The notes under the pieces are model-generated. The model made no database searches, was not told where the DNA came from, and saw only the letters and a program-made list of their open reading frames with translations. Positions 6,669 through 36,707 of a stretch of 44,976 nt of DNA are shown piece by piece; position 1 is the stretch's first letter, and the number at the start of each line of letters is the position of its first letter. Source of the stretch: a virus; IMG/VR virus record IMGVR_UViG_3300037196_000189, positions 1 to 44,976 of that record, one strand, 5' to 3'. The translations under genes were made by a program, and so were the position numbers.

Positions 6669-9600
6669 TTATTCTGAATTTCTCTTAGTTTGTGATACTA
6701 ACTGAATCGCTTGTTTATATTTTGATTCATCTTGCATACTACGATTAGCTTTCCCTTTTTCTTTCATTGATTTAATAAATTCAATAGCTTGTTTAAGAGG
6801 TTCTTCTAAATTTGGATGTTGTGGCTGACCTTGACCTTGTTGTGGTTGTTGAGGTTGTTGTGCATTCGTAGGCTGAGAACCACTTGATTTTCCTTGAGTT
6901 TCTTCACCTGCTTTATTTACTTCATTACTTTGTCCATCAACTTGTCCTGGAATCTGACCCATAGCATGAGCCTGCATATCTCCTAACTTCTGATTAAATA
7001 ATTGATCTCCCATTGATTCATTTTGAAGAATTTCTGGATTAATCCATCTCGGATCATTTGATGAAATTTCTTTTTGAATTTCTCTATCAAATTCCTTTAT
7101 TTCATCATCAGTTTGTTGTAATACTTCTTTTCGTATCCATTTATGAGGATAATATTTATCAGCCATTGGTTGAAATGCTGATGCAAGATTAATTCTATTC
7201 TGTGCAATTTCTGCTTTTTTAAGTTCATCAAAATAATTATCTTTAGCGTAATCAAATTTAATGTCAGCAGAAATCTGTTCCCATTCATCAATTGACATAA
7301 TACCTTTAAGAACAAGTTGTTTTTTAAGGAGTTCTGTAAACAAACATGTAAATTTAATACGAAGTCTTATAACAAATTTTTGAAATTTTAATTCATCTCG
7401 TGTAATTCCAGTCGCAGTTCCGCCCATATCTAACGCATCAGAATTAAGTCTTGAAATAGGAACATTGAGAGCATTAAGGAATTTCTTTTGAAAATAAAGA
7501 ACATCATCCATTTGACCAAGAGTTTGACCACCAGGAAGAGTAATAACCTCTGTACCTTTTCCTCCTTCACGTCTTGGAAGCCAATAATCTTCCATCATAG
7601 TCATGAATTTTCTATCGTCTTTTACTTCACCGGACTGAGCATCATAAATAAGACGATTTCTATGACGAACCATAATTTCTCTGAGATATTGTTCTGCTTT
7701 AATTTTTGGAAGATTTCCTACATCAATATACCAAATTCGTCTTTCTGGTGCTCTTGACAATCTATAAATGACAAGTGCATCTTCTAATGTTCGAAGCTGA
7801 TTAAGACATTTAATACTATTAGAACATACCATATGATTTGCAATAAAGTTATGAGAAGGATGATCTACAGTAATATCAAATACTTCTTCATCTTCTTTTC
7901 CAGAAATTTTAATAATATTTTCCCATTCTGGTAATAATCTTTTAGAAAGGTAAATATTATATCCAATGAATGACTTTCCAAAAGAATTTATTTTATGTTT
8001 AGTGACTTTTCCAGAAGAATAGCCTAATAATGTCCAAAGTTCTTTAATATCATAAATTAATTCTTCATTGGATAAATTAATTCTACAGGACAATGTTTTT
8101 TCTTCATCCATATCAGTATCATCATAACAACCATCTGCATCCATAAAACCCTGCATAAATGCATATTGTATAAAGGTCTCCGCTCTAAAAACCCAAGAAG
8201 GAATACGTTTATTTTTTGCTCCAGTAATAAAATCTAAATTTTTTAATAACTCTGCCGCTAATGTATTGCTGGTATACCAACTAGAAAATATTCTACCAGT
8301 TGAATTAATTCTTTCACAATTTCCAAAAAAGTCTCTCATTAAATTACAGTAAAAAATATTTTGACTTTTATCTATGCCTTCAGCAAAACTTACTGTATAT
8401 TTATTTACACATCCGTCACCCAAAAGAAAACCAAATAAACGAGCAAATCTTTCATCTATATATTGAGGAATGTTTAATTTATTAGAACACATCCCTTCTA
8501 ATTTTTTGTTTAAATCTAATTTCATTGGAAGTCTATTAATAATATTTTGTGCAGATGTTTCACTTAAAACACCATAACCATAAATGAACGAATAAACTTT
8601 ACTGAATTTAATATCTAATTCATTAGCAATATCTCTAATAATTTTTTTCTTATGTAAAATATTAGATTTAACCCAAACTTCAGGATTTTTAATTTTACAA
8701 ACAACATTTCTTTTTGATATTGGAAATTCTATTTCTTTACCAAATTGCTTATCATAATTATGAGCAAGTTTAACCTGATGAACTTTTGGAAATAAGTTTT
8801 GTGCTTCGATATATTCAATTTTATTAGTTTTATTATTTTTTACTAAAACTTTATGTTCATAACTACAATCAAATTTTGTATGTCTTGTTCTTATAGATAT
8901 AATTGGTTTAATACCACTAGCCCACTTATCAATAACATTAGATTTTTCAAATGAATTGTCTTCAACATTGTAAGAATAAACTTCATCTCCTTTTTCAATA
9001 TGCTCTAAATATTTCCAGCCATCAGGAGTTCGTATTCTAGTATTTTTTGGTAAACATTTATGTAGATATGAAAGAACCATTGTACCTTGATTGTCTGTTA
9101 ATCCAGACACAACATGTAGAATAGTATCTTTTGCTATCTTTAGTCCAGTAGTAGATGGTCCTACTACTTTATTTCCATAATTAAAACCTTTATCATTAAA
9201 AATATAATATTCATTTACTGTTTGGGAAACAACAGCATCTCCGGGATGATTAGAATCTGTTCTTCTTTTTGATATTTCTCTAATTTTTCTAATTTTTCTG
9301 GGATCGACATAACGTAATTCTTTTATGCCTTCTTGTGGACTGTTTTTATCTATTAAAACATGAAAATATAAACGGCCATCAATATACCAACGTCTGTAGA
9401 TATCATAGGCATGAGAGGAAAAATCTAATAATTTAAGACAATTCTGAAATTCTTCTTTGATTGCAGATTCTAATTTATCTGAAATAATCTTCACATTTTC
9501 AAGATTAATAGAAACTATTTTTTTATCTTCGATTGCAATTGATTCATTAACAATTTCATCGATTGCTGCATCACATTCTGGATGAAGAGACATTTCTCTA

Positions 9601-9785
9601 TATTTTGTAACTAATTCTGCTTCTGTACGAACTGTTCCATCAAGATCCACATATGTCCCGTAGCCAGAACCAGCAGAAATAAGAACAGCACCATCATTAG
9701 TCTCTTGTGGAGTAAATGATGGTAACTGTTCTTTGTTTGGATCTTTTCGTTTAAATTCCCAACCGAATAAACTCACAGAAGGCAT
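6669..9785 (-). CDS. 20: Portal vertex protein gp20, interrupted by an intein
   Basis: The 1038-aa precursor is portal residues 1-243 plus 657-1038 around a 413-residue intein. Exteins match T4 gp20: the N-part ends VLSYLHK and the C-part begins SIKCLNQLRTLEDALVIYRL (T4 ISYLHR / AVKPANQLKLLEDAVVIYR). This is followed by RAPERRIWYIDVGNLP, NRLIYDAQSGEVKDD, MMEDYWLPRREGGKGTEV, LPGG and VPISRLNSD. The spliced protein would be 625 aa (T4: 524), longer mainly through a Gln/Pro-rich tail (QPQQPQQGQGQPQ, ~residues 960-990). Portal forms the dodecameric DNA channel, starts prohead assembly and docks the terminase. The start overlaps the preceding endonuclease stop (TAATG); AGGAG lies upstream. A functional portal requires splicing. 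Confidence 0.96.
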   Translation of the reverse strand: MPSVSLFGWEFKRKDPNKEQLPSFTPQETNDGAVLISAGSGYGTYVDLDGTVRTEAELVTKYREMSLHPECDAAIDEIVNESIAIEDKKIVSINLENVKIISDKLESAIKEEFQNCLKLLDFSSHAYDIYRRWYIDGRLYFHVLIDKNSPQEGIKELRYVDPRKIRKIREISKRRTDSNHPGDAVVSQTVNEYYIFNDKGFNYGNKVVGPSTTGLKIAKDTILHVVSGLTDNQGTMVLSYLHKCLPKNTRIRTPDGWKYLEHIEKGDEVYSYNVEDNSFEKSNVIDKWASGIKPIISIRTRHTKFDCSYEHKVLVKNNKTNKIEYIEAQNLFPKVHQVKLAHNYDKQFGKEIEFPISKRNVVCKIKNPEVWVKSNILHKKKIIRDIANELDIKFSKVYSFIYGYGVLSETSAQNIINRLPMKLDLNKKLEGMCSNKLNIPQYIDERFARLFGFLLGDGCVNKYTVSFAEGIDKSQNIFYCNLMRDFFGNCERINSTGRIFSSWYTSNTLAAELLKNLDFITGAKNKRIPSWVFRAETFIQYAFMQGFMDADGCYDDTDMDEEKTLSCRINLSNEELIYDIKELWTLLGYSSGKVTKHKINSFGKSFIGYNIYLSKRLLPEWENIIKISGKEDEEVFDITVDHPSHNFIANHMVCSNSIKCLNQLRTLEDALVIYRLSRAPERRIWYIDVGNLPKIKAEQYLREIMVRHRNRLIYDAQSGEVKDDRKFMTMMEDYWLPRREGGKGTEVITLPGGQTLGQMDDVLYFQKKFLNALNVPISRLNSDALDMGGTATGITRDELKFQKFVIRLRIKFTCLFTELLKKQLVLKGIMSIDEWEQISADIKFDYAKDNYFDELKKAEIAQNRINLASAFQPMADKYYPHKWIRKEVLQQTDDEIKEFDREIQKEISSNDPRWINPEILQNESMGDQLFNQKLGDMQAHAMGQIPGQVDGQSNEVNKAGEETQGKSSGSQPTNAQQPQQPQQGQGQPQHPNLEEPLKQAIEFIKSMKEKGKANRSMQDESKYKQAIQLVSQTKRNSE
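7818..9056 (-). mobile_element. LAGLIDADG intein in the portal
   Basis: 413 residues (precursor 244-656). Block A starts with Cys1 (CLPKNTRIRTPDGWKYLEHI). Block B is FDCSYEHKV (His in the TxxH-type position). The endonuclease motifs are ARLFGFLLGDG and YAFMQGFMDADG, i.e. two LAGLIDADG helices with acidic ends. Block F is VFDITVDHPSHNFIANHM. Block G is VCSN followed by Ser+1. The penultimate residue is Cys instead of the usual His; the terminal Asn and the Ser nucleophile are intact. Exteins on either side align to uninterrupted T4 gp20, so both boundaries are fixed to the residue. It is probably an active splicing and homing element. Confidence 0.93.
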
Positions 9786-10444
9786 TAAATAATTCTCCTA
9801 TAATTTATATTTTCATTATCATTAATTCTTAAACTTATAGTGCCAGCAGAAACTCCTTCAAGCTTAGCTGCTTCTTTCTGAGTGTCAAAAATACCAAAAG
9901 GAGTTTCTATTCGTCCTTTCCAATTACGATTTTGTTTTCCGCTTTGAGAATATTTTTCTGTCATTATTATCTTAAATTTTTCTTTAACATCATCACGTAA
10001 TGCCGGATTAGGATTTTTATATCCAGATTCAAATAGTTTTTTTCTTGATTCTCTCATTTTTTGTTTAGTTTCTTTGGTTCTTTCATATTTTAATTTTTCT
10101 TTATGTTTTTCTGAAAGAGATTTTCCATAAAGATAATGTTCGGGACCACTGATTCCTATAATATAACATTTATTATCTGATATATTTAACCATTTATCAT
10201 TATAAATTACTTTCATTCTTATAAGAACTTTTTCCTCCCATAATCTAGCTTTATAAGAATCTTCAAAAGTTCGTCTTATTTCAATAATGTCAGGTTCTCC
10301 ATTTTGTTCTCTAAATTGTTTAACATATTTAGATGACGTAAAATATTTAACCCATAAATCAGATGGATTACAATATTGGGCAAAACGAACTCCATAATAC
10401 CATTTATTTAAGTTGGACCAGCCAATAAGATATGTATATGCTAT
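9785..10444 (-). CDS. GIY-YIG homing endonuclease with a non-ATG start
   Basis: The frame is open back to TAG at 10454. The GIY-YIG nuclease domain is upstream of the first ATG (10216): codons from 10444 read IAYTYLIGWS then NKWYYGVRFA, CNPSDLWVKYFTSSKYVKQF and GEPDIIEIRRTF. A call from 10216 would lack the catalytic domain. After it come NUMOD3-like repeats (SLSEKHKEKLKY, KETKQKMRESRK) and a C-terminal helix-turn-helix (FDTQKEAAKLEGVSAGTISLRI). The only codon suitably placed after AGGA (7 nt) is ATA at 10444; no ATG, GTG or TTG exists in frame before 10216. It is either an AUA-initiated gene or a start-codon-loss pseudogene. It sits between gp19 and gp20; the stop overlaps the portal ATG. 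Confidence 0.72.
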   Translation of the reverse strand: MAYTYLIGWSNLNKWYYGVRFAQYCNPSDLWVKYFTSSKYVKQFREQNGEPDIIEIRRTFEDSYKARLWEEKVLIRMKVIYNDKWLNISDNKCYIIGISGPEHYLYGKSLSEKHKEKLKYERTKETKQKMRESRKKLFESGYKNPNPALRDDVKEKFKIIMTEKYSQSGKQNRNWKGRIETPFGIFDTQKEAAKLEGVSAGTISLRINDNENINYRRII

Positions 10445-11176: not shown

Positions 11177-11851
11177 TTATTTAGTGTTTATTTTTTTATA
11201 TCCTCTTGTTAATTTCCAAGAAATGATACGACCTAATTTCCAATTTTCTCCAGGACACCCTTTTGAACGAACTGTAATTTCACCATTATTCCACCATCTA
11301 ATACCTTTTTGAGATTTCTTAGCAATTTCAGATAATTTTATCTTAACTTCTTCTGTTCGTTTTTGACCAGTTTTACCTTTTTTTCTTTCAGACATTATTT
11401 GTTTACTCTTATCTGAATGAGTTCTACCAGTCCTACAATTCCAATCAAATGTTCTTCCTTTAAACCATTCTTTTCCGGGTGATTCATTGGAACGAATATT
11501 ATTTATTCCATCAGTCCACCAAAATTTATCTTTAGATGTTTTAAATTTTTCTTCATCAACTATTCCACAACCTTTAAAACATTTAGTTAAATTGTAATAT
11601 TTTTTTCCTAATTCTTCATTTGGAATTAAATATAAAAACTTATATTCTTCTAAAAATGTTTCTTGTCTATCATTGATATTAGAAACCAATATTTCTCTAT
11701 TAAAATCATTAAACCTTCTTCTATATGCTTTTCTCATCCATGAAGAAGAACAAATGTATCCATCATCTTCAAAGCCCCAATGACACCCTATATAAAATCT
11801 ATCATGTTTTTTGTCATACCAACGATAAACAAAACCATATTTTTCTTTCAT
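11177..11851 (-). CDS. GIY-YIG homing endonuclease between gp18 and gp19
   Basis: 224 aa. The nuclease core is at residues 5-11 (YGFVYRW) and 19-26 (FYIGCHWG), followed by DDGYICSSSWMRKAYRRR as in its paralogues at 1-797 and 22110-23033. Residues 111-133 and 186-208 are two copies of a WW-N/D-G...RS...PG..W..GR motif found in phage endonuclease DNA-binding tails. Between them is a NUMOD3-like stretch (GRTHSDKSKQIMSERKKGKTG). It is a free-standing homing endonuclease inserted between sheath and tube genes. The ATG at 11851 follows AGGAGAA, which is paired in a 13-bp hairpin. It appears intact. Confidence 0.92.
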   Translation of the reverse strand: MKEKYGFVYRWYDKKHDRFYIGCHWGFEDDGYICSSSWMRKAYRRRFNDFNREILVSNINDRQETFLEEYKFLYLIPNEELGKKYYNLTKCFKGCGIVDEEKFKTSKDKFWWTDGINNIRSNESPGKEWFKGRTFDWNCRTGRTHSDKSKQIMSERKKGKTGQKRTEEVKIKLSEIAKKSQKGIRWWNNGEITVRSKGCPGENWKLGRIISWKLTRGYKKINTK

Positions 11852-14413: not shown

Positions 14414-15556
14414 TTAATAACGTATATCATATTCTAATTCTGGAAGACGAATCCAAGAAGGATTTTCTACTTTTTGCCATCCTTGAGATACATCATCATC
14501 GCGTCCATCCATAACAAAACCGAATATTAACATATCATTTTCTATTTCATCTTCTGTTTTTTCACGAAGATTCATTAATGTATTAATATTACTATGTTCT
14601 TTAAAATAAGTTTGATCTGACATCCATGCAAAAAGAAATAAACAACTTACCAAATCATCATGTTTTCCATTTTCTGCTTCATAATTAGTTGCTTTTCTAA
14701 CAAATGTAGACAACTCATTAATAGTTTCATGATCTACAAGTATTAATTGATTTTGTTCTATGAGAAGTTTTAATAATTGACAACCAACAGTTTTTACTGT
14801 TTTTGTTGTTTTAATTCCTTTATCAAGAGTAGAACTTTTACCAAAACCACCTGTAATTCTTTTACCATTTCGTCCACCAGCTTCTGTATATAAAATATTT
14901 TCATATGCAAATTCATTAATTAAGGTATGAGATACCTGTTCACCAATATCATTAACTTCTATAAGAACAATTGCATCGTTATAAATCTTTGCGCTATGAA
15001 GAATAACAGAAGCATAATCTGCAGGAGGAAGAGTATTATTTCTAAATACACATACTTGAGTATAAGGCATACATGTTATATCTACAATTTGAAATGCAGA
15101 ATAATCTATTCCTTTTCCACGGGATACATCACAAACCATACCATATAAATGATCTTTTTCTGGTAATGCATATTGATAAAGTCCTTCTTTAATATTTAAT
15201 GGAGTTTTAAATGAAACTTCTAATTCTTTAAGTTTCCATGCAGCAATTAATGTGCTTGTACTACCAATGAACTCACAGTTATGTGATATTATTTTATTAG
15301 TATAATATAAATATTCTTCAACATCCAATAAATCATAATATGTAAATTCTTCATCATATATTGTTTTAGAATCAACTAAATCTTTTGCATACATAAATGA
15401 ATTATTATACAATATACGATGTTTTGGAGAACATATTAAATTACCACAATAGTCAGGCAATCTAGTTTGTCCAACTTTTCTTACTTTTTGGATTCCAGTA
15501 AAGTTTTTCCACCCAGATGGAGTTAAAATTTCATATTTGTTATTTAATTTATACAT
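14414..15556 (-). CDS. 17: Terminase large subunit gp17, C-terminal part with C-intein
   Basis: 380 aa. Residues 1-93 are the C-terminal half of a split intein ending ISHN. From Cys94 (CEFIGSTS) the sequence is the gp17 nuclease domain: GMVCDVSRGKGIDYSA (Asp143; T4 LDCSEGRGQDYHA), VLIEVND (Glu200; T4 VYIELN) and NGKHDDLVS (Asp300/301; T4 EGYHDDLV). These three acidic sites are the RNase H-like metal centre that cuts packaged DNA. It also has TTKTVKTVGCQLLKLLIE, matching T4 TKRTKAVGCSTLKDLIE. It is made separately from the ATPase half and must be joined by trans-splicing. Its ATG lies inside the end of the HNH endonuclease gene (8-nt overlap). Confidence 0.93.
   Translation of the reverse strand: MYKLNNKYEILTPSGWKNFTGIQKVRKVGQTRLPDYCGNLICSPKHRILYNNSFMYAKDLVDSKTIYDEEFTYYDLLDVEEYLYYTNKIISHNCEFIGSTSTLIAAWKLKELEVSFKTPLNIKEGLYQYALPEKDHLYGMVCDVSRGKGIDYSAFQIVDITCMPYTQVCVFRNNTLPPADYASVILHSAKIYNDAIVLIEVNDIGEQVSHTLINEFAYENILYTEAGGRNGKRITGGFGKSSTLDKGIKTTKTVKTVGCQLLKLLIEQNQLILVDHETINELSTFVRKATNYEAENGKHDDLVSCLFLFAWMSDQTYFKEHSNINTLMNLREKTEDEIENDMLIFGFVMDGRDDDVSQGWQKVENPSWIRLPELEYDIRY
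15278..15556 (-). other. C-terminal half of an atypically split intein
   Basis: 93 residues starting with the gene's own ATG (MYKLNNKYEILTPSGWKNF, then TGIQKV). Block B is in this half (CSPKHRILY, His46 in the TxxH-type position). Block F/G is EYLYYTNKIISHN followed by Cys+1. The intein is therefore cut between blocks A and B, not at the usual endonuclease site near the C-terminus. The layout and local sequence (ILxPxGxxNFxGIQKV ... SHN/CEF.GS) agree with the AceL-TerL type of split terminase intein as I remember it. Confidence 0.9.
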
Positions 15557-16142
15557 CTATACGAATATTTTCTTTTGTTATTAAATTATAAATATATACA
15601 GAAGAAATGTCATAAATTTTTGAAAAATGTTTAGCAAATGCTCTTTCATATGTTAACATTTTTCCATTTCTTAAAATAGTTCCAACCTTATCAACATCTT
15701 CTATATCAATAGTTCTATCTTTATAAAATTTCCAAATTTCTTTAATTATGTTTTTATCTATTTTAATAGAATGGATTTTACCTTTTCTCAACTGCGACCA
15801 TTTAAATTTTTGCTCGATTGAATGAAAATGAGTATTTCCTTTATTAATAGGCATAGTTCCTTTTTTTCTTCCACCAATTCCAGGTCTTTTTATTCCTTTT
15901 TGAATATCGCTTTTAAATTTGCTACCAAGTCCTATTTTATAACCAATTAAAGCAACTGCTCCCCAATCTTCTTGTTTCATATGTATTTGAAAATGCTCTT
16001 CAATAGAAACACATTTTAAGTTTTCTATACTATCATTTTTATTATTTCCATCTATATGATGAATTTCATAACTAATATTGTTTTCATCATATGGAACTAA
16101 TCCAAACTTTTTAATCCAAATTCTTCTTGTCTTATTACTCAT
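15549..16142 (-). CDS. HNH homing endonuclease between the split terminase halves
   Basis: 197 aa. The N-terminal HNH nuclease is at residues 25-54: YEIHHIDGNNKND (His28/His29), the IENLKCVSIEEH segment, then HFQIH (His50, His54). The rest is basic: GIKRPGIGGRKKGTMP, SQLRKGKIHSIKID, and a C-terminal helix-turn-helix-like end (AKHFSKIYDISSVYIYNLIT), probably for target binding. It sits between the N-intein gene (stop 26 nt before its ATG) and the C-intein gene (8-nt overlap). This is the place where a fused intein would carry its endonuclease domain, so it probably mobilises the split intein allele as a separate protein. Its ribosome site is hidden in a 17-bp hairpin with a late promoter box in the loop. 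Confidence 0.9.
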   Translation of the reverse strand: MSNKTRRIWIKKFGLVPYDENNISYEIHHIDGNNKNDSIENLKCVSIEEHFQIHMKQEDWGAVALIGYKIGLGSKFKSDIQKGIKRPGIGGRKKGTMPINKGNTHFHSIEQKFKWSQLRKGKIHSIKIDKNIIKEIWKFYKDRTIDIEDVDKVGTILRNGKMLTYERAFAKHFSKIYDISSVYIYNLITKENIRIDV

Positions 16143-16144
16143 AT

Positions 16145-16210
16145 TTAAATATTCCTATAAAATTACATTCATAAGTATTTATAAAATAGTGAATTTATAG
16201 GAATATTTAA
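16145..16210 (-). promoter_or_regulatory. Long hairpin sequestering the HNH ribosome binding site
   Basis: A perfect 17-bp inverted repeat (16145-16161 with 16194-16210, 32-nt loop). On the minus strand the 5' arm is inside the N-intein codons (for LNIPIN), the loop contains the stop of that gene, and the 3' arm carries TATAGGAAT, the Shine-Dalgarno of the HNH gene (ATG 16142). Read-through mRNA would hide the site. Confidence 0.78.
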
Positions 16211-18385
16211 GATTTCTCCAGTATCTTTATCTCTTAATGTTATTATTGTTGAGCCATCAACACATTCATATTCAGCTTCAAATTTTTGTATATCATGATT
16301 AATTGTTGAAAGAGTATCTTCTTTCCATCTTTCATCTCTTCCTGGTACCTGTCTCCAATTAACAGAAATTGGTGTATAGTTATTAATTCCCATTCTTGCA
16401 TTTACCCACAATGCATGAAAGTGATTTAACCCATAAGGTGTCTGGAAACCTACAGCTCCATTGTAAATAATACTATGACACCATTTATCACCTTCAATAT
16501 CCGGTAAAGTAAAATCATAGACTTTATTTTCAGAAATATCTATTTTTTTTACAGTGTCCCATTTAATATTTTTATCGACAATCTCATGTTGTATTCCTAA
16601 AGATAAAGCCTCTTTTCTTGAAATATGTTCATTAGTTTTATGTACTCCATTTTTTGGTGTTTTAAAATGTTTTCTACCAAAAGGAATGTAGTCTTTAGTA
16701 ATACCTTTGTAAGGTTTATTTTTTTTAAATTTATTTCTTTTTCTTTCTAAACCAAAACCAATTTTTTCCATATATAGTTTTTGCTGTTCATAAGCACAAA
16801 TTTCTAAAGTCCAAACATCGCTTTCTACTTTAACTTTTTTTGTCGGTTTTGTTCTTCGATAATATTTTTGAGTAAAAATACCAAGATTTAATAATAAAAT
16901 TCTTATTTGATTAATAAGTTTTTCAGAAGAAGAAGCTACAGAAATATTTCCTCTGTCACCAGATATACAACCATCACCATCAAAAAACCCTCTAAGAAAA
17001 GCACAAATCACTGTTTCAGAACATTGAAACAATCTTTTTGGAATTGTTTTATCTTTTGCTTTTTTGGAAATATCAAAGCCAAAACCTTCTAAAAAATTAA
17101 AAAAACTACGGCTACATATATTATAATGGACATTATCATATTTACAAAAACGTAATCCAAGATTGGTTAAAGATGAAGATATATCGTCTCCACAAGAAAT
17201 AACAATTCTACCACGTTTTTTATCTGCATATCCTTCCGATAAAAAAAGACCAAAAAAATATGCTAAATCAATATCAATCTTATCTGGTACTATAAAAAAA
17301 TTTTCTATTTTTTTATTAAAAATTTTCTTCTGTAGATCTTCAATATTATCGTTGTTACCCCACAAATTCATACCATACCGAAGAGCAATCCATTCATCTA
17401 CTTCAATATCTTTAGCTTTTTTAAAAGAATAAATACCATTTTTATCGCAAACCCAAAATTTATGTTTATATGAACATTCTACTTCTGTGGATTGTGTTTT
17501 TATTTTATAGGTTTCTGTTGTTCCAGAATTAACCATAAAACTACCATCATGTATTTTATCTTTTCCAAGAACTTTATAAGGAGAAACTTCATATCCAAGA
17601 TTAGGATGTTCGATTTGTGTTAAATCGATTAAATCAGATATTTGTTTTGGCCCATCAGAAGTAAAAATATATGTATCTTTCGTTACACATGATGAAAGAA
17701 TAATTTTGGAATGTTTTCCAGAAGAAATAGTAGGCATAACAGAAGCAGAGAATTCTTCCCAGTTTTCAATAAATGCTGTTTCATCAATATAAAGAAGATT
17801 AATAGCAAATCCTCTGACACTTTTTTTAGTAGTTGCAGCAGCAATTACACGAGAATTATTTTCTAATTCAAGAGAACCTTTATTCCATTCAAGAATACCT
17901 TGTTGTAACCATTTTGGAAGATATTCGTATGAAAATTGAATACGTCCTAACATTTCACGAGCAACTTTTCCATCATTGGCTAAGAGTGCTACTGTTTGTT
18001 CTGCATTAAATAAAATATACCAGAGAATATATGCACAAACCGAAATGCTTTTACCAGATTGTCTTGCAGCAAGAACAATTGTATTTCTGTTAACATGAAA
18101 AGAACGTAACATATTTTTTTGATATTCATATAACTGAAATTTTTGTAATCCATTATTAACGTTAATAATTTTTATATATCTCTCAACAAAATATATAGGA
18201 TCTTCTGAACATTTAACATATTCTTGAAGTAATTCAGGAGTCCAGTCTATATTTTGATTGGCTCTTTTTAATTTTATATCTCCAAGATAACCTTTTAATT
18301 TTTGATCAAATATAAAATCTTTGGGCTTTTCTTGTACTTGTGTCTCTTTTACTGTCAATTTATTATTATAAACCCCACTTATCAT
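16169..18385 (-). CDS. 17: Terminase large subunit gp17, N-terminal ATPase part with a full intein and an N-intein
   Basis: 738 aa. Residues 1-232 are the packaging ATPase: VLAARQSGKS (Walker A, 104-113), NLLYIDETAF (Walker B, Asp201/Glu202) and SGKHSKIILSS. Residues 233-648 are a full LAGLIDADG intein. The extein resumes TPYGLNHFHALWVN (T4 TPNGLNHFYDIWTA). Residues 649-707 end FEAEYE, and 708-738 are the N-half of a split intein ending in a stop. The catalytic nuclease domain is in the separate gene at 14414-15556. The finished terminase would be about 578 aa (T4: 610). It powers DNA entry through the portal and cuts the genome. The start is ATG at 18385, overlapping the zinc-finger gene by 20 nt. 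Confidence 0.95.
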   Translation of the reverse strand: MISGVYNNKLTVKETQVQEKPKDFIFDQKLKGYLGDIKLKRANQNIDWTPELLQEYVKCSEDPIYFVERYIKIINVNNGLQKFQLYEYQKNMLRSFHVNRNTIVLAARQSGKSISVCAYILWYILFNAEQTVALLANDGKVAREMLGRIQFSYEYLPKWLQQGILEWNKGSLELENNSRVIAAATTKKSVRGFAINLLYIDETAFIENWEEFSASVMPTISSGKHSKIILSSCVTKDTYIFTSDGPKQISDLIDLTQIEHPNLGYEVSPYKVLGKDKIHDGSFMVNSGTTETYKIKTQSTEVECSYKHKFWVCDKNGIYSFKKAKDIEVDEWIALRYGMNLWGNNDNIEDLQKKIFNKKIENFFIVPDKIDIDLAYFFGLFLSEGYADKKRGRIVISCGDDISSSLTNLGLRFCKYDNVHYNICSRSFFNFLEGFGFDISKKAKDKTIPKRLFQCSETVICAFLRGFFDGDGCISGDRGNISVASSSEKLINQIRILLLNLGIFTQKYYRRTKPTKKVKVESDVWTLEICAYEQQKLYMEKIGFGLERKRNKFKKNKPYKGITKDYIPFGRKHFKTPKNGVHKTNEHISRKEALSLGIQHEIVDKNIKWDTVKKIDISENKVYDFTLPDIEGDKWCHSIIYNGAVGFQTPYGLNHFHALWVNARMGINNYTPISVNWRQVPGRDERWKEDTLSTINHDIQKFEAEYECVDGSTIITLRDKDTGEILNIPINSLFYKYL
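16172..16264 (-). other. N-terminal half of an atypically split intein
   Basis: 31 residues beginning with Cys1 (CVDGSTIITLRDKDTGEILN), i.e. block A only, then a stop. Combined with the 93-residue C-half it gives a 124-residue mini-intein without an endonuclease domain. Typical split inteins have ~90-100 residues in this half. The extein junction FEAEYE/CEFIGS aligns with T4 gp17 AAFEGTSG. Confidence 0.9.
16176..16183 (-). promoter_or_regulatory. Candidate late promoter inside the HNH hairpin loop
   Basis: TATAAATA on the minus strand, lying in the loop of the 17-bp hairpin, 34 nt upstream of the HNH ATG. A transcript starting about 6 nt further on would contain the 3' arm and ribosome site but not the 5' arm, so the HNH gene would be translated only from this promoter. 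Confidence 0.5.
16442..17689 (-). mobile_element. LAGLIDADG intein in the terminase ATPase domain
   Basis: 416 residues (precursor 233-648). Block A has Cys1 (CVTKDTYIFTSDGPKQISDL). Block B is VECSYKHKFWV. The endonuclease helices are AYFFGLFLSEGYA and CAFLRGFFDGDGCI. Block F is VYDFTLPDIEGDKW and the end is NGAVGFQ followed by Thr+1. The last residue is Gln, not Asn, and the penultimate is Phe, not His. Boundaries are fixed by the uninterrupted T4 order SKIIITT-TPNGLNHF. Insertion splits the ATPase coupling motif (T4 TTT), a highly conserved site. Confidence 0.92.
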
Positions 18386-18584
18386 CCATTGCTATTTCTT
18401 TATTTCTTCTATTAATAGCTATATTTTTATGTAAACGACAACAATATAATTTATCTATTCTTGTTAATTTAAATTCTTTTTTACAGATAGGACATACTCT
18501 GATTTTTATCACATGACCACATGTAGGACATTTTCTTCTAAAATGTGGTAAGAATTTTATCTGATCATACGGAATTCTTATCAA
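18366..18584 (-). CDS. Small zinc-finger protein between the terminase genes
   Basis: The 72-aa frame starts with TTG at 18584. It has two cysteine clusters: CPTCGHVI (residues 19-26) and CPICKKEF (31-38), followed by KLYCCRLHKNIAINRR. This is a C-x2-C ... C-x2-C ... CC-x2-H pattern of the zinc-ribbon type seen in small DNA-binding proteins and at the N-termini of some HNH enzymes. It overlaps gp16 by 20 nt and gp17 by 20 nt, and its ribosome site is weak (GAAGAAAA). T4 has no gene here. It could be a packaging accessory protein or a leftover of an endonuclease. Function is unknown. Confidence 0.6.
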   Translation of the reverse strand: MIRIPYDQIKFLPHFRRKCPTCGHVIKIRVCPICKKEFKLTRIDKLYCCRLHKNIAINRRNKEIAMDDKWGL

Positions 18585-22109: not shown

Positions 22110-23033
22110 TCAATTCCAATTTTCTTTTGTTGCTTTATTAATAATTGTTTTATGATCAATATTGTATTTTAATGCAATTTTACGTATTGATATTTTCCGT
22201 TCTATGAAATCACTCTTAATAGATATCCAATCTATCATTCTACATTTTTCATTATGATATCTTCCTATATTTAAGGGAGTTCCTTCAAAACCACATTTTG
22301 AACAAACTTCTTTTTTAGAACATACATTTTTGCCTAACTCAATTCCATTTTGTTTCCAAACTTCTTTAGTTTCTTCTGAAATAATCTTATTTTTAGCAGC
22401 TTGTTGAATATTTTCTAATGCTTGTCCTGTATGCTTTCGTCCTTTATTCTTTTTTCCACCTTGACGAGAATTTTTAAAAGCTTCGCCTTCCATAAAAGAT
22501 TGATCTCTTGATTCAATTCCTTTTAAATGTTTTTTACGAACTTCAGGTCTTTGCATTGCTTCTTTAGTTTTAATAGAAATTTTTTCATTTCTCTCTGGAT
22601 CTTTAGCAGAATTTTTTTCTCTTTCTCGCATTTCTTTTAATTTGTCAGGATTGTTTTTATAATGTTCCTTTACCTTTATTGATATTTTTTCTTTTATAGG
22701 TAATCTATTAATCTCATTAATATTTGTCCAATGATTAAATTTATGATTATGAATATTATAATATTTAATTTTTAATTCTTCTTTTTTGATCATAGAAAGC
22801 CATTTATATTCTTCTTCTAACAAATCTTGTTTATTAGTATAAATCCTTGATAAAATTTTTCTATTTAACTGACCATTAAATTTTAAAAAATCTTGTGGTC
22901 TTCTTTTATATGAATCTTTCATCCATTTAGAAGAACAGATATATCCATCATCTTCTGTTCCCCAATGACATCCTATATAATATCTTTTATGTTTTCTATC
23001 GTGCCAAATATATACAAATCCATATTTTTCCAA
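22110..23033 (-). CDS. GIY-YIG homing endonuclease between gp13 and gp14
   Basis: 307 aa from TTG at 23033; AGGAG lies 8 nt upstream and paralogues start at the same place. The nuclease core is at residues 4-10 (YGFVYIW) and 18-25 (YYIGCHWG). The middle is Lys/Glu-rich with NUMOD3-like units. Residues 244-264 (CSKCGFEG then HNEKC) look like a zinc finger, and 282-300 (SIRKIALKYNIDHKTIINK) is a helix-turn-helix. It is the longest of the three closely related endonucleases and the only one with this zinc-finger/HTH tail. It is a free-standing homing enzyme in the neck gene cluster. Its ribosome site is in a 10-bp hairpin. Confidence 0.92.
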   Translation of the reverse strand: MEKYGFVYIWHDRKHKRYYIGCHWGTEDDGYICSSKWMKDSYKRRPQDFLKFNGQLNRKILSRIYTNKQDLLEEEYKWLSMIKKEELKIKYYNIHNHKFNHWTNINEINRLPIKEKISIKVKEHYKNNPDKLKEMREREKNSAKDPERNEKISIKTKEAMQRPEVRKKHLKGIESRDQSFMEGEAFKNSRQGGKKNKGRKHTGQALENIQQAAKNKIISEETKEVWKQNGIELGKNVCSKKEVCSKCGFEGTPLNIGRYHNEKCRMIDWISIKSDFIERKISIRKIALKYNIDHKTIINKATKENWN

Positions 23034-23911: not shown

Positions 23912-25468
23912 TTATTGAATTCCCATGAAAGAAAATACAGGAAGCATAGAAGTTTGTGTTATTGAATAAGTAATAACTACAATACCTTGAGCACCAACAC
24001 CTCCATAACCACCACCGCCGCCACCATAAAGACCGCCAGAAGTATTATTACTACCACCAAAAGTGCTAACACCACCACCACCAGATCCACCACCAGATCC
24101 ATATCCAGAACCTAATGAATTATCAGAACCACCAATACCACCAAAATGTGAAGGATCGCCACCACCACCACCACCACCAAGAGTACCATGATTGCCATTA
24201 CCTGAAAGAGCACCAACACCAGTTCCAACACCAAATGTACCTTCACCGCCATTACCACCAACACCATTAGCAATATTATCACCAATAATTCCATTACTTG
24301 ATGATCCACCATCTGAACCACCACCACCGGCACCAGCACTTACACCACCGGCACCACCAGGATTGCCATTACCATTTGGTCCAGCACTACCGCCACCGCC
24401 GCCACCGCCGCCACCAGAACCAGATCCACCATTACCACCATAATAAACTACAGTACCAATAGCCCCAGATGTACCAGTAACAGCCTTAGCACCATTAGCA
24501 GTAGAAGTTGGAATAGCATTTGCGTATATATTAATCCAAGAATTAGCACTAGAAGGAGTACCAACATAAAAATAAACAGTAGAACCAGGAGTTACAGTTA
24601 AACTACTATTAAAAGCATAACCACCACCACCACCACCACCACCAGAACCAGATGCAGTAGTTCCATTTTTACCAGAAGAAATAGTTTGTATGTTAATTGA
24701 AGTAACGCCTGCCGGAACTGTCCAAGAACCATAACCTGTATTTGTAAAATAAACTGCATTAGCAACTACAGTTGTTGTAACTGTATATTGAGCAACAATT
24801 AAACCCTGGCTTCCAGATCCATTTGAAATACCACCACCACCACCACCATAAAGACCACCACCACCACCACCAAGACCATGTAAATTTAGGCCACCACCAC
24901 CACCGGCACCATAACTTCCCCATTCAGCTCCAGGATAACCATTGCCAGCAGGACCAGAACTATATGCTCCTCCAATACCACCAAAACCATTATCACCACC
25001 ACCACCACTACCATTACTAAAACTATTTTGTCCGGCACCATATGGTCCAGCAGCACCACCACCACCACCACCACCATTACTATTATCCATACCGCCAGCA
25101 TATACTACAGTACCAACAGCACCTGTAGTAGAACCACCAACACCACCGCTATTTGATCCAGGATTAGCTAAAGCACCATTAGCAACAGAAGTAGGAACAG
25201 CATTAGTAGAACCATTAAACCATGAAGGACTAGCATTAGCAGCACCACCAATGTAGTGATAGGCTGTTCCTCCTGGCGTACATTGAACATTAACACTATT
25301 GGAAAAACCACCACCACCACCACCACCACCACCACCATTAGACTGACCACCACTACCAATAACAGCAACTGTATTATTACTATTATTCCAATCTGCCGGA
25401 ACTGTCCAAGAACCATAACCTGGAGTTGTAAAAAATATAGTATGAACGTTAGTAAAAGTAATTGTCAT
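23912..25468 (-). CDS. Glycine-rich phage adhesin with two Gly-rich domains
   Basis: 518 aa made of two tandem domains. Each opens with a short beta start (PGYGSWTVPADWNNSNNTVA at ~14; TGYGSWTVPAGVTSINIQ at ~245) followed by ~200 residues of poly-Gly runs broken by Asn, Ser and Ala. This is the phage Gly-rich domain; similar runs form packed polyglycine II helices in T-even gp38-type receptor-binding tips. The C-terminus is LPVFSFMGIQ, nearly the same as in the 304-aa paralogue. It lies 2 nt after a fiber gene, so it probably caps that fiber. The DNA has long GGN tracts that are GC-rich against the genome. Receptor and binding loops cannot be predicted. Confidence 0.8.
   Translation of the reverse strand: MTITFTNVHTIFFTTPGYGSWTVPADWNNSNNTVAVIGSGGQSNGGGGGGGGGGFSNSVNVQCTPGGTAYHYIGGAANASPSWFNGSTNAVPTSVANGALANPGSNSGGVGGSTTGAVGTVVYAGGMDNSNGGGGGGGAAGPYGAGQNSFSNGSGGGGDNGFGGIGGAYSSGPAGNGYPGAEWGSYGAGGGGGLNLHGLGGGGGGLYGGGGGGISNGSGSQGLIVAQYTVTTTVVANAVYFTNTGYGSWTVPAGVTSINIQTISSGKNGTTASGSGGGGGGGGYAFNSSLTVTPGSTVYFYVGTPSSANSWINIYANAIPTSTANGAKAVTGTSGAIGTVVYYGGNGGSGSGGGGGGGGGSAGPNGNGNPGGAGGVSAGAGGGGSDGGSSSNGIIGDNIANGVGGNGGEGTFGVGTGVGALSGNGNHGTLGGGGGGGDPSHFGGIGGSDNSLGSGYGSGGGSGGGGVSTFGGSNNTSGGLYGGGGGGYGGVGAQGIVVITYSITQTSMLPVFSFMGIQ
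23990..25340 (-). repeat. GGN-codon low-complexity tracts
   Basis: Repeated short (CCA)n/(CCG)n runs on the plus strand, coding Gly on the minus strand. They create false His- and Pro-rich open frames on the plus strand and Val-rich frames on the minus strand. Slippage can vary Gly-run lengths. Confidence 0.85.
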
Positions 25469-26235: not shown

Positions 26236-26252
26236 TATTTATATTATTTATA
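26236..26252 (-). promoter_or_regulatory. Two adjacent candidate late promoter boxes
   Basis: TATAAATA occurs twice on the minus strand (26236-26243 and 26245-26252), 28 and 37 nt before the ATG of the 245-aa fiber gene. The upstream box overlaps the end of the 304-aa gene. Two boxes 1 nt apart make chance somewhat less likely. Confidence 0.42.
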
Positions 26253-27162
26253 CAATTCCCATAAAACCAAATGAAGGTGTATAAACTACTGCAACAATTG
26301 GCACAGTATAAGTTATAATTATAATACCATTTCCAGGAAGAGAATCAGTTCCAATACCACCACCACCAGCACCACCATAAAGTCCACCAGCACCACCTGT
26401 ATTACCAGTTATAGCTCCAGCACAACCACCGCCACCGCCACCGGCACCATAAAGACCACCACCCAATGATGTATCAGAACCACCAGGACCACCGGCACCA
26501 TCAATAACACCACCGCCACCGCCGCCACCGCCGCCACCGCCAAGAGTTCCTGTACCACCAACATTACCTGTATTTGCACCACCAACACCGCCACCACTGC
26601 CGGATGTTCCCTTACCACCAGCACCACCAACACCAACACCACCATCAGAACCAGCAGTAGATGAACCACCATCAGAACCACCACCGCCGCCACCGCCGCC
26701 AGCGGCATCTGTACTACCACCACCACCGTTCTTACCAGCACCACTTGGTCCAGCAGCACCACCACCGCCGCCACCACCAGCACGACTTATACTTGTTCCG
26801 CCATTAGCACCATAATAAACTACCGTGCCAATACCACCTGTAGTTACAGCAACAGCACCGGCACCATTAGCAGGACTATTTACACCACCTCTTGCTAAAC
26901 AACCATTAGCAGTATTTGCTGGTGCAGCATTAGCAGCTTTATTTACCCATGAATTAGCAGTAGCACCACCAACATAGAAATAAACAGTATTTCCACCAGA
27001 AACAGAAATAGAACTAGTACAAGCATAACCAGCACCAGCACCACCACCACCATGTTGAGGATCGTAACCACCGCCACCAATAGCTTGTACATTAATTGAA
27101 GTAACACCTGCCGGAACTGTCCAAGAACCATAACCCGTATTTGTATTTGCATAAATTGTCAT
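26248..27162 (-). CDS. Glycine-rich phage adhesin (cassette 1)
   Basis: 304 aa with one Gly-rich domain. The start NTGYGSWTVPAGVTSINVQA (~8-27) is nearly identical to the second domain of the 518-aa protein. Then come poly-Gly runs of up to about nine residues separated by short Ser/Asn/Asp loops. The C-terminus YTPSFGFMGIV matches LPVFSFMGIQ of the paralogue. It follows the 307-aa fiber gene by 20 nt. By analogy to gp38-like adhesins it probably sits at a fiber tip and binds the host surface. It has no enzymatic motif. Confidence 0.8.
   Translation of the reverse strand: MTIYANTNTGYGSWTVPAGVTSINVQAIGGGGYDPQHGGGGAGAGYACTSSISVSGGNTVYFYVGGATANSWVNKAANAAPANTANGCLARGGVNSPANGAGAVAVTTGGIGTVVYYGANGGTSISRAGGGGGGGAAGPSGAGKNGGGGSTDAAGGGGGGGGSDGGSSTAGSDGGVGVGGAGGKGTSGSGGGVGGANTGNVGGTGTLGGGGGGGGGGGVIDGAGGPGGSDTSLGGGLYGAGGGGGGCAGAITGNTGGAGGLYGGAGGGGIGTDSLPGNGIIIITYTVPIVAVVYTPSFGFMGIV
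26330..27070 (-). repeat. GGN-codon low-complexity tracts
   Basis: Dense CCA/CCG triplet runs on the plus strand that code for polyglycine in the 304-aa adhesin. Similarity to the 23990-25340 tracts could allow recombination between the two adhesin genes. Confidence 0.8.
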
Positions 27163-33252: not shown

Positions 33253-35304
33253 TTAGTCAGCCTGAAGTGCTAATGTACTTAAAGTTGATACTCTTGGAAC
33301 TACTACCGGATTATCAGAAATTGGTACAATTTTAACAGAAAATTGATTAAACGAATCAAAGAAAATATCATCAGGTGTTAAATATCTCATAATATTACTA
33401 TTTCCATCATATAAGAATGCACCAGTTTCATCTTCTAGACCGGGAATAATACCAACATTAACATTTGTGGTATTAGAAAATGATGGCAATGATAATAATT
33501 GTAATACACTACTATTAACAATATGCGCTACACCTCTAACATTAAATGCACCAGTAGAAGAATCTGTTAAATATAAAGCAAGTCCAGTATGGAATGAATT
33601 TGTTGATGGAACAGTAACATATAAACTATCACTTGAACAATTACATCCTGAAACATCTCCATATAAAAGTTGACTTACCGGAAAATCATACATTACATTA
33701 ACAAAATCATTTAAATTTGTTGATGAAGAAAATGATGTTACCGTATTAGTAGATTCAACCAATCTTGACCATATTCTATTAGCATATAAGTTTGGATCAT
33801 TTCCATTAATAACTTTTCCATAAACCTTAAAATTAGTATTAGCTGGTCTATAAGCAGATAAGTAAACCTGTAAGTCTTCTGCATCTTGTCCAGTTGCAAG
33901 AAGAGTAGATTTAGAAATATATCTAGATTGGTTAATAAATACATTGGAAGAATATTTTTCATTTATTGCAGTAGCAGCGACAACCCATGCATTTACTGAA
34001 GGATTGCTTGAATTATAAACGGACATTTCACCAAAAAATTGTCCAACTGGAATATTAATCCAGATATAATTTGTATCCATCTGATAAACAGTACCATATA
34101 CAGTTGTATTAGCATTTATATTTTGAGCTACGATATCTCCTGGCAAAAACATTCCATAATTATATGTATAAGATAATCTCCATCCATAAGTTTGTTCATC
34201 CATATACAACATATTGGTTGTACAAGTTACATATCCTAAAGAAGGATTTGAAAAAGGAAGACATAAAGAATTTGCCATCGCAACACGATGTCTACACCAA
34301 ACAGATCTTTGACCACCATCATCAACCCATTCATTGCTTCTGGATTTCCAGACTCTTGGGTAATCTGAATATAAATTTTCCTGTTCATTGGTAAATGTCC
34401 AATTAGTTTGCATATCATACTGATTATCATATGCTGTAGTATCATTATCAGAAGTAAGAGACAATAACTTATTATAATTGTTGTCATAGTGACTAGAACT
34501 ACCAGAAAACATACTTGTCCAATTACCATATGCCCAATAATATTGAGCAGCTTTGGCTGAACCAGTACTTTCATCACCTGGATTGAATATTGGTAAAGCA
34601 CAAGTGCATACTGCACCACCATTTGCAGTATTAGCAGGAGTAATTACTCCTGGAGTATAGAAAATAACAACTAAACCTTGTCCTCCTGCTCCTACATCGC
34701 CACCACCGCCACCATATAATCCTCCGTTATTATAACCACCACCGCCACCTGATCCGTAATTCCCCCATTCTGTACCACTTTTTCCATCACCTGTTGCATT
34801 ATATCCAATATATTGATAGCCACCCGCTCCACCATAACCGGCATCGCCAGTTCCACCATAAGTCGAATTTGCATCTAATCCGTTACCATGGGGACCGGCT
34901 GCACCACCACCGGTTCCTATATAATAATAACCCCTTCCGCCACTATAATTGACATCACCATAGAACCCCTGTCCGCCTAGATTGTAACCACCCCCGCCAC
35001 TATCATTGTTTATTCCGCCCGTACCCAATATTCCTTGGGCTCCACTTGAAGGTTGAGCATTAGTTATTATGTTAATCCAACTATTACCACCTTGTTGTGG
35101 ATAAGGAGTATGAGGACCAACATGAACATATATCGTTGTTCCTGGAGTCAATGAAATATTACTTTTAGAAGAAAATCCACCGCCACCACCACAACTATCA
35201 CCACCGCCAGCACCTATTACTGCCATATAATTATTAGTATTGTTCCAGTCCGATGGAACAATCCAATTAGTAGTTGACGTAAAAAAATTATTTATACCTG
35301 TCAT
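33253..35304 (-). CDS. Baseplate/fiber protein with a Gly-rich N-terminus
   Basis: 683 aa from ATG at 35304, overlapping the previous stop as ATGA; a GTG at 35325 is an alternative that would use up the GGAGG site. Residues ~10-215 are a Gly-rich adhesin-type domain (NWIVPSDWNNTNNYMAVIGA). The middle (~225-420) is an Asn/Tyr/Trp-rich unknown domain. From ~430 it has QSRYISKSTLLATGQDAEDL and VYLSAYRPANTNFKVYGK, and it ends FNQFSVKIVPISDNPVVVPR VSTLSTLAL with one gap here. Those C-terminal segments are the usual end of DUF4815 baseplate proteins in aquatic T4-like phages. So it seems to be a detached DUF4815 end joined to an adhesin domain. Confidence 0.75.
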   Translation of the reverse strand: MTGINNFFTSTTNWIVPSDWNNTNNYMAVIGAGGGDSCGGGGGFSSKSNISLTPGTTIYVHVGPHTPYPQQGGNSWINIITNAQPSSGAQGILGTGGINNDSGGGGYNLGGQGFYGDVNYSGGRGYYYIGTGGGAAGPHGNGLDANSTYGGTGDAGYGGAGGYQYIGYNATGDGKSGTEWGNYGSGGGGGYNNGGLYGGGGGDVGAGGQGLVVIFYTPGVITPANTANGGAVCTCALPIFNPGDESTGSAKAAQYYWAYGNWTSMFSGSSSHYDNNYNKLLSLTSDNDTTAYDNQYDMQTNWTFTNEQENLYSDYPRVWKSRSNEWVDDGGQRSVWCRHRVAMANSLCLPFSNPSLGYVTCTTNMLYMDEQTYGWRLSYTYNYGMFLPGDIVAQNINANTTVYGTVYQMDTNYIWINIPVGQFFGEMSVYNSSNPSVNAWVVAATAINEKYSSNVFINQSRYISKSTLLATGQDAEDLQVYLSAYRPANTNFKVYGKVINGNDPNLYANRIWSRLVESTNTVTSFSSSTNLNDFVNVMYDFPVSQLLYGDVSGCNCSSDSLYVTVPSTNSFHTGLALYLTDSSTGAFNVRGVAHIVNSSVLQLLSLPSFSNTTNVNVGIIPGLEDETGAFLYDGNSNIMRYLTPDDIFFDSFNQFSVKIVPISDNPVVVPRVSTLSTLALQAD

Positions 35305-36707
35305 ATTTCTGTAATATACCTCCACGCATTTGGATAACTAGATTGGAAGGTATTATAAGATCTGTATCCTCCCCAATACAATTTATGTTCATTTTCTTCA
35401 ATTTGATCAAAATGTAATTGAGGTATAACACAATGATATTCTAAATCTATTGTACCAAAACTCATACAACGTGCTCTTGAAGACTGTCCAATAATAAATC
35501 TTCCTTCAGAATTGGCAAAATGAAAATATTGATTTATTTGTGTATTTGCTGTAGAATTATTAAATGTGGCAATCATATTATTTTGCTTTATAGAATCATA
35601 ACCTTGATAATCCATTTTTAATGATAAATTATCTCCTCTTAAAGTTCCTATTAAGCAATTTGAATCACTAAACAACGGTTTCCATGATACTTGAATACTA
35701 TTATTACCAGGATTTACAGAAGTCACAATAAATGGTTGACTTTTAGTCAAATCAGAACTTACTAAAAATATAGATTGATTTGCATAAAACATATTAGTAG
35801 AACCACTTCCTACAAAAGGAACACTTATTGTGTTTGATAAAGTAGAACATACTACTGACGTATTTATGTTTCCAATCCAGGCATTTGCTCCAGATGAATT
35901 ACCAGTAATATTAATAGTATTACTAACAGTATTGCTTGTATTATATAATAATAAAACAGAAGAATTTGCATAATAAACTTGACCTGTTATAGGCTCAAGA
36001 CCGCCACCCAATGTTTGATAAAAGTACTCCCCATTAATAAAACTTCCAGTTAGCAATCCAGGAAATATTTGTGCATTAACAAGATTTAAATTTGAATTTG
36101 ACATATAACAGCTTTCACCGATAGTAAATGGATTAGTAAAATCATTTACCACAATGTGTTCTTCATTAAAATTATAGCTATCGTCATGATATCTTGGATT
36201 TATAGCAAAACCCTTATTAATTGAGAATTTAAGTGCTTGATTTGATAATGTTGTTCTATCAGATCCTTGATCCCATGTAATTAATGATCCTACTGCACCA
36301 TTAAATTGTATAGGAACTTTAGTAGATTGATCTATACCATTTGCAGTAGCTCCCCATAAAACATAACCATTATTGGCAGAATCAATATTAGGAATAATCA
36401 TTAGAGAATATCTTGATAATGATTTTAACTGAACGGGTTTTAAAAATGTAAATGTTGAAGGCACACTGCCATCAGAAGAAGTTTTTAAAATGTAAGATCC
36501 ATTTGAATATTTATCAGTCGGTCTTACAGTTACTCTTGAATTTTCTACAATGTTATAAGTAGGCATTCCATTAGCGACTTCTCTAATTTGAACATCAATT
36601 CCCATTGTTTGATTTATAGATTTAAAATAAAGAGACACTGATGAAATTGTTACAACAGAAATGCCGCCTAAAGGTTGTGTTACAACAAATATTTGCGCAA
36701 GACTCAT
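35301..36707 (-). CDS. Baseplate-associated protein, detached middle domain of the DUF4815 protein
   Basis: 468 aa. The start (SLAQIFVVTQPLGGISVVTI, then VSLYFKS) and IDVQIREVANGMP, STFTFLKPVQLKSLSRYSLM correspond to a domain that in relatives follows DUF4815 in the same chain (laQtF.v...gi.vt.vdlfFksk...pv.iqiRev.nG.P; ttFtF..pvyL....Yai). Here it begins in the same frame as the upstream 1434-aa gene, after only TAA TTA, with its own AGGAG site. It carries no enzyme motif. It is probably part of the same wedge or fiber-attachment complex. Confidence 0.72.
   Translation of the reverse strand: MSLAQIFVVTQPLGGISVVTISSVSLYFKSINQTMGIDVQIREVANGMPTYNIVENSRVTVRPTDKYSNGSYILKTSSDGSVPSTFTFLKPVQLKSLSRYSLMIIPNIDSANNGYVLWGATANGIDQSTKVPIQFNGAVGSLITWDQGSDRTTLSNQALKFSINKGFAINPRYHDDSYNFNEEHIVVNDFTNPFTIGESCYMSNSNLNLVNAQIFPGLLTGSFINGEYFYQTLGGGLEPITGQVYYANSSVLLLYNTSNTVSNTINITGNSSGANAWIGNINTSVVCSTLSNTISVPFVGSGSTNMFYANQSIFLVSSDLTKSQPFIVTSVNPGNNSIQVSWKPLFSDSNCLIGTLRGDNLSLKMDYQGYDSIKQNNMIATFNNSTANTQINQYFHFANSEGRFIIGQSSRARCMSFGTIDLEYHCVIPQLHFDQIEENEHKLYWGGYRSYNTFQSSYPNAWRYITEI

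What the first reader, a model, noticed from the sequence alone, without database searches (positions are those of the whole stretch)
14414..18385. Large terminase broken into two genes joined by an atypically split intein, with an HNH endonuclease between the halves
The ATPase gene ends in a 31-residue N-intein (Cys1, block A only). The nuclease gene begins with a 93-residue C-intein holding blocks B, F and G (...ISHN/Cys+1). Joining at FEAEYE/CEFIGS gives a continuous gp17. The split lies between blocks A and B, the rare AceL-TerL type, rather than the common split near the C-terminus. A free HNH gene fills the gap (26-nt gap on one side, 8-nt overlap on the other). The class is known in metagenomic terminases as I recall; what is notable is the complete genomic setting plus a second full intein in the same protein.
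Basis: partly seen in the sequence, partly recalled or inferred. Interest (0 to 1): 0.88.

Follow-up and report, generated by a model that had tools for sequence, protein, structure and literature searches.

The report
Split terminase intein with HNH endonuclease

Summary
The large terminase (gp17) is two genes: an ATPase half ending in a 31-aa N-intein and a nuclease half starting with a 93-aa C-intein, with an HNH gene between. Two other assemblies contain it. The C-intein matches the consensus atypical TerL intein CatC by sequence (E=4e-12) and fold. The class is known (AceL/GOS/Cat TerL inteins; 'fractured genes') but not rare: at least 120 IMG/VR stretches have an intein at this junction, and 91 of 93 readable ones are split. 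Most hold an endonuclease with one shared C-terminal domain and either a GIY-YIG or, as here, an HNH catalytic domain. In relatives the whole insert is up to 99.9% identical where flanking terL DNA is only 77-78% identical, sharp at the intein borders: it homes as a unit. Upstream of the endonuclease lies a copy of the uninterrupted terL target site beside a T4 late-promoter motif (motif in 45 of 53 non-redundant loci); in this window a 17-bp hairpin also covers the ribosome-binding site. This is the T4 I-TevI control layout. Trans-splicing, cutting and repression are inferred, not shown. New member of a known kind; the operator layout is the most novel part.

The parts
16169..18385 (-). gp17 ATPase half, 738 aa: N-extein (Terminase_6N) + internal LAGLIDADG intein + 31-aa N-intein
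16172..16264 (-). N-intein, 31 aa, Cys1, block A only; codes in part the hairpin arm and late-promoter motif
   Evidence: sequence; same position in dozens of relatives
16442..17689 (-). Second, complete intein in gp17 (416 aa, LAGLIDADG), between IILSS and TPYG; ends in Gln
15549..16142 (-). HNH homing endonuclease gene, 197 aa: HNH_3 N-terminus, shared C-terminal region (NUMOD3-like in several relatives)
15278..15556 (-). C-intein, 93 aa (blocks B, F, G; His46; ends ISHN)
   Evidence: PDB 6dsl CatC E=4.4e-12; fold match
14414..15277 (-). gp17 nuclease half, C-extein (Cys+1, CEFIGS..., Terminase_6C)
16154..16173 (-). Copy of the uninterrupted terL junction (TATGAATGTAATTTTATAGG, 16/20 to TATGAATGTGAGTTCATTGG); candidate operator
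16176..16183 (-). T4 late-promoter motif TATAAATA, 41 nt upstream of the HNH start
16145..16210 (-). 17-bp hairpin hiding the Shine-Dalgarno (AGGA) of the HNH gene, late-promoter motif in the loop

Best explanation
This is a homing element whose parts move together: an atypically split intein of the AceL/GOS/Cat TerL kind and, between its halves, a free-standing HNH homing endonuclease gene. The two terminase halves are made as separate proteins; the 31-aa N-intein docks into the 93-aa C-intein and the pair trans-splices through Cys1 and Cys+1 to give one continuous gp17 motor. The endonuclease cuts intein-free terL alleles at or near the conserved E-C-E-F-[LI]-G codons during co-infection, and repair copies N-intein + endonuclease + C-intein into the break; splicing keeps the essential gene alive. 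Endonuclease output is held down as for T4 I-TevI: a hairpin hides its ribosome-binding site on long transcripts, a late promoter in the loop gives a translatable late mRNA, and the protein may bind a copy of its own target site beside that promoter. Shown here: gene structure, homology, conservation, purifying selection, unit transfer in relatives, presence of the motifs. Inferred: trans-splicing, cutting and its site, promoter activity, repression.
For: CatC homology by sequence and fold. Intein catalytic residues conserved in 35 aligned nuclease halves (block B His46, S91-H92-N93). 91 of 93 readable TerL inteins at this junction are split, 71 with a middle ORF. Insert more alike than both flanks in 96 of 111 pairs, e.g. 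99.9% against 78/77%, sharp at the intein borders. C-intein dN/dS 0.10, as in the extein (0.11); endonuclease 0.20. Every relative with the shared C-terminal region and enough flank checked sits in a split TerL intein; the full-length HNH relatives do wherever the C-intein was readable. Target-site copy at p<=0.01 in 28 of 41 loci, TATAAATA in 45 of 53. Hairpin z -3.6. T4 precedent: PMC2988022.
Against: No biochemical data. The homing pairs are GIY-YIG relatives or other HNH lines; the window's own lineage has no close pair. The site copy could be a scar, not an operator. No intein-free terL carrying this endonuclease was found. The hairpin is strong in the window and some HNH loci but not general (18 of 53 loci at z<-2).
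Confidence: 0.85

Rival explanations
1. Genes in pieces: the two terminase halves work as separate subunits without splicing, as NrdA of Aeromonas phage Aeh1 does, and the intein fragments are inert tails.
For: The break lies between the ATPase and nuclease domains; an HNH-split enzyme that works in pieces is known (Friedrich 2007, cited in PMC10448857 and PMC3322345).
Against: The C-intein is as constrained as the extein (dN/dS 0.10 against 0.11), its catalytic residues are invariant or nearly so, and close relatives are experimentally active trans-splicers (AceL, GOS, Cat; PMC11766414).
Confidence: 0.06
2. The target-site copy is only a scar: the endonuclease carried a short flank of an intein-free terL when it entered the intein, and it has no regulatory role.
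For: The copy remains, decaying, in loci that have lost the endonuclease (L098, L085, L037). Its order relative to TATAAATA varies between lines.
Against: It persists in most diverged lines with the endonuclease, is absent with unrelated Vsr-like genes, stays beside a late-promoter motif, and has the same degree of match as the proven I-TevI operator (16/20 against 15/20).
Confidence: 0.45
3. Assembly error or frameshift: the halves are one gene in the real phage.
For: Contiguous relatives exist (L105, L008).
Against: Three assemblies agree at about 99.95%, and the layout recurs in dozens of diverged contigs with an intact gene of about 190-200 codons in the gap.
Confidence: 0.01
4. The HNH protein is a working part of the packaging machine (like the HK97 HNH protein that acts with terminase at cos) rather than a homing endonuclease.
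For: It lies within the terminase gene; HK97 precedent (PMC10448857).
Against: It is absent, or replaced by GIY-YIG or Vsr-like nucleases, in close relatives, and the insert spreads independently of the terminase DNA around it.
Confidence: 0.03

Closest known systems
AceL-TerL / GOS-TerL / Cat atypically split terminase inteins
   Same: Same gene, same junction E/CEF[LI]G, split between blocks A and B with a short IntN; direct sequence and fold homology.
   Different: IntN is 31 aa (AceL 25, Cat 30, GOS 37; PMC11766414); Cys1 not Ser1 (GOS); an endonuclease gene lies between the halves, which the AceL type L113 lacks.
'Fractured genes' (Dassa et al. 2009, NAR; not readable here, from memory)
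   Same: Conserved phage enzyme broken by a split intein with a free-standing endonuclease gene in between.
   Different: Atypical split site, and HNH with a region shared with GIY-YIG relatives instead of the Vsr-like family; Vsr-like genes do occur in other TerL loci here.
T4 I-TevI / I-TevIII and Aeh1 mobE control systems
   Same: Homing-site-like sequence, late promoter and RBS-hiding hairpin upstream of the endonuclease (PMC2988022). The HNH domain is closest to 'intron-like DNA endonuclease'/I-TevIII-type proteins.
   Different: Housed in a split intein, not an intron; function untested.
Campylobacter phages CP21 and vB_CcoM-IBB_35 terL
   Same: Cultured phages with, by my reading, an atypically split TerL intein and a 421-aa endonuclease-like gene between the halves.
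   Different: Another insertion site (GFSC/CNIIVVDE, Walker B region) and a different middle gene; the IBB_35 paper describes an intein plus an intron (PMC3322345).

Membership tests
Atypically split TerL intein (AceL/GOS/Cat) | Homology to CatC / Hint fold | tested here: met
   E=4.4e-12; Foldseek E=2.7e-7
Atypically split TerL intein (AceL/GOS/Cat) | Split between blocks A and B, IntN 15-37 aa | tested here: met
   31 + 93 aa; range from PMC13014065
Atypically split TerL intein (AceL/GOS/Cat) | Cys/Ser1, block B His, terminal His-Asn, Cys/Ser/Thr+1 | tested here: met
   Cys1, His46, H92-N93, Cys+1; conserved in 35 sequences
Atypically split TerL intein (AceL/GOS/Cat) | Insertion at the gp17 E/CEF[LI]G junction | tested here: met
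Atypically split TerL intein (AceL/GOS/Cat) | Trans-splicing activity | not testable with these tools
   needs co-expression
Fractured gene (Dassa 2009) | Conserved enzyme broken by a split intein with a free-standing endonuclease gene between the halves | tested here: met
Fractured gene (Dassa 2009) | Vsr-like endonuclease (half of the published loci, from memory) | tested here: not met
   HNH_3 instead; not required of all members
HNH homing endonuclease | HNH catalytic motif intact | tested here: met
   PF13392 E=1.5e-8; H28 H29 D31 N41 H50 H54 invariant in 33 sequences
HNH homing endonuclease | Element spreads independently of flanking DNA | tested here: inconclusive
   Met in relatives, mostly GIY-YIG forms; no close pair for the window's own lineage
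HNH homing endonuclease | Cuts the intein-free site | not testable with these tools
   needs protein
I-TevI-type controlled endonuclease | Homing-site-like sequence at its promoter | tested here: met
   16/20 in the window; 28 of 41 loci at p<=0.01
I-TevI-type controlled endonuclease | Late promoter and RBS-hiding hairpin | tested here: met
   TATAAATA at -41; 17-bp stem, z -3.6; motif match only
I-TevI-type controlled endonuclease | Protein binds the operator and represses | not testable with these tools
   needs binding and reporter assays

The most novel reading that the evidence does not exclude
Split TerL inteins and their endonucleases form one co-evolved homing unit: a shared target-binding region carries interchangeable HNH or GIY-YIG cutters, and the endonuclease autoregulates by binding a copy of the intein-free target site at its own late promoter, an operator of the I-TevI kind in an intein-based element. 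Endonuclease insertion made the split, and later endonuclease loss left endonuclease-free split inteins such as AceL-TerL.
Probability: 0.45. Interest if true: 0.78.

Novelty: new member of a known kind. Interest (0 to 1): 0.58.

Why it matters
Split inteins are key protein-joining tools, yet how they arise and spread is still open. One natural family here shows every stage (contiguous, split with HNH, split with GIY-YIG, split with none), direct signs of recent transfer as a unit, and a candidate control element. That makes the idea 'an endonuclease insertion splits the intein' testable, and supplies many new short-IntN split inteins for engineering.

Tried and rejected
The GTDB genome scan gave only weak matches in cellular genomes, not followed up. 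Foldseek of the HNH model found nothing significant (I-HmuI at rank 2, E=2.4). Dassa 2009 and Stevens 2018 are not held, so statements about them rest on memory or on citing papers. Assembly error considered and rejected. The endonuclease in an intein-free terL, the expected ancestral state, was looked for among the loci of the two endonuclease scans and not found. The C-intein tree has few columns and weak deep forks, so only starred clades were used. A general hairpin was not supported: 18 of 53 loci at z<-2.

Full report
What is there. The window is a 45-kb IMG/VR record holding a T4-like late module on the - strand: gp17, then by order and similarity gp18 sheath, gp19 tube, gp20 portal, gp21, gp22, gp23 (only gp17 and gp20 were checked by profile). 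gp17 is two genes. The upstream one (16169-18385) encodes the ATPase domain, interrupted by a complete LAGLIDADG intein (16442-17689), and ends after FEAEYE in a 31-aa N-intein. The downstream one (14414-15556) starts with a 93-aa C-intein ending ISHN and goes on as CEFIGS and the nuclease domain. An HNH gene (15549-16142) lies between. Two further assemblies carry the same locus at about 99.95% over 12 kb with a handful of differences, so it is not an assembly break.

What it is. The C-intein matches CatC, the consensus atypical TerL intein, by sequence (E=4.4e-12), and the AlphaFold model of the nuclease half (mean pLDDT 81) matches gp17 of T4 and RB49, CatC and, weakly, VidaL. Naturally occurring atypically split inteins have IntN of 15-37 aa (PMC13014065); 31 fits. 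Of 93 loci in which the ATPase side is also readable, 91 are split and 2 contiguous (L008, L105); 71 of the 91 have a middle ORF of 90 aa or more and 20 do not (two of the loci are the same phage as the window). The AceL-TerL type (N-intein CVYGDTMVETEDGKIKIEDLYKRLA; identified from memory of the published sequence) is L113, with overlapping halves and no endonuclease.

The middle genes are modular. Most of those found by the junction scan have a GIY-YIG N-terminus (PF01541 E=1e-4 for L006), while the window, L020, L035/L106, L055 and some 60 further loci found with an HNH profile have HNH_3. Both share one C-terminal region (IGGxKKG..PWNKGKK, NUMOD3-like, then helices). In the tight AceL-like clade of the C-intein tree (starred) L209 has HNH, L193 GIY-YIG, L113 and L103 none, and L105 is contiguous. 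The L209 and L193 C-terminal regions are 71% identical and group on a starred branch although their catalytic domains are unrelated: the cutter was exchanged on a kept, presumably target-binding, part. Loci with Vsr/DUF559-like genes form other lines, several with Ser1 (GOS-like) N-inteins. Shared-domain relatives with enough flank lie inside split TerL inteins.

It moves as a unit. Among 111 related pairs the insert (N-intein + endonuclease + C-intein) is more alike than both terL flanks in 96 and less alike than both in 1 (the pairs are not independent). L130/L023: insert 99.9%, flanks 78% and 77%, with the change at the intein borders. HNH-type pairs lean the same way (L212/L221 94% against 87/79%). 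C-intein dN/dS is like that of the extein (0.10, 0.11) and the endonuclease is constrained too (0.20) in the main group. Near-identical inteins with and without the gene (L006/L019) and leftover site copies without it (L098, L085, L037) point to loss.

Control region. Between the N-intein and the endonuclease ATG lies a copy of the intein-free terL junction next to TATAAATA. In the window: TATAAATA 16176-16183 and TATGAATGTAATTTTATAGG 16154-16173, 16/20 identical to the joined junction TATGAATGTGAGTTCATTGG. TATAAATA also lies 69 nt upstream of the presumed gp23, as expected of a late-promoter motif. Over 53 loci non-redundant at 80% endonuclease identity TATAAATA is present in 45 (1.9 expected from shuffles), and the copy reaches p<=0.01 in 28 of 41 testable loci (0.4 expected; related loci are not fully independent). 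L058 matches its own junction 19/19. In the Thr+1 clade the copy lacks the Cys codon, but that is one clade only. In the window a 17-bp hairpin (16145-16210; -20 kcal/mol, z -3.6) hides the Shine-Dalgarno with TATAAATA in its loop, and cannot form in a transcript starting there. For T4, I-TevI has an operator 15/20 identical to its homing site overlapping its late promoter, and RBS-hiding hairpins are known for I-TevI, I-TevII, I-TevIII, segB and mobE (PMC2988022). The window thus shows all three elements by sequence; function is inferred.

Known or new. The intein class (AceL, GOS, Cat) and the 'fractured gene' layout are both published, so this is a new member of a known kind. Cultured Campylobacter phages CP21 and IBB_35 hold a comparable split at another TerL site (described as intein plus intron in PMC3322345). 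What I did not find described, within the papers held, is the target-site copy and its tie to a shared target-binding region with exchanged cutters. Dassa 2009 could not be read; as I recall it mentions control elements brought in with the endonuclease gene, so part of this may be anticipated there.

Noticed in passing
6669-9785 (-), intein 7818-9056: The gp20 portal gene also holds a complete LAGLIDADG intein (SYLHK/CLPK...VCSN/SIKC), so packaging genes of this phage carry three inteins in all.
   Followed up: partly
16442-17689 (-): The full intein in the ATPase half ends FQ/T (Gln instead of Asn, no penultimate His) and sits at the IILSS/TPYG motif; a distant relative lies in terL of Psychrobacillus phage Perkons (26% identity).
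   Followed up: partly
9785-10216, 11177-11851, 22110-23033 (-): Three more endonuclease-like ORFs (NUMOD3/homing-endonuclease profiles for the first two) between structural genes; the region is rich in homing elements.
   Followed up: no
L281 1125-3340 (KR052482.1, Sinorhizobium phage phiN3): The nearest cultured TerL relative is annotated as two adjacent 'terminase large subunit' genes (195 and 543 aa), broken at another place and without an endonuclease gene between.
   Followed up: no
L283 124-4410 (CP21); L282 (IBB_35): terL of Campylobacter phages appears to hold several inteins, one split with a 421-aa endonuclease-like gene between the halves.
   Followed up: partly
L018, L042, L044, L050, L059, L109: Split TerL inteins with Vsr/DUF559-like middle genes and no target-site copy; several have a Ser1 N-intein like GOS-TerL.
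   Followed up: partly
23912-25468, 26248-27162, 33253-35325 (-): Three glycine-rich ORFs share a repeated YGSWTVPA...GGGG domain, probably tail-fibre proteins.
   Followed up: no
18366-18584 (-): Small zinc-ribbon-like ORF (72 aa) overlapping the start of the ATPase half by 20 nt.
   Followed up: no
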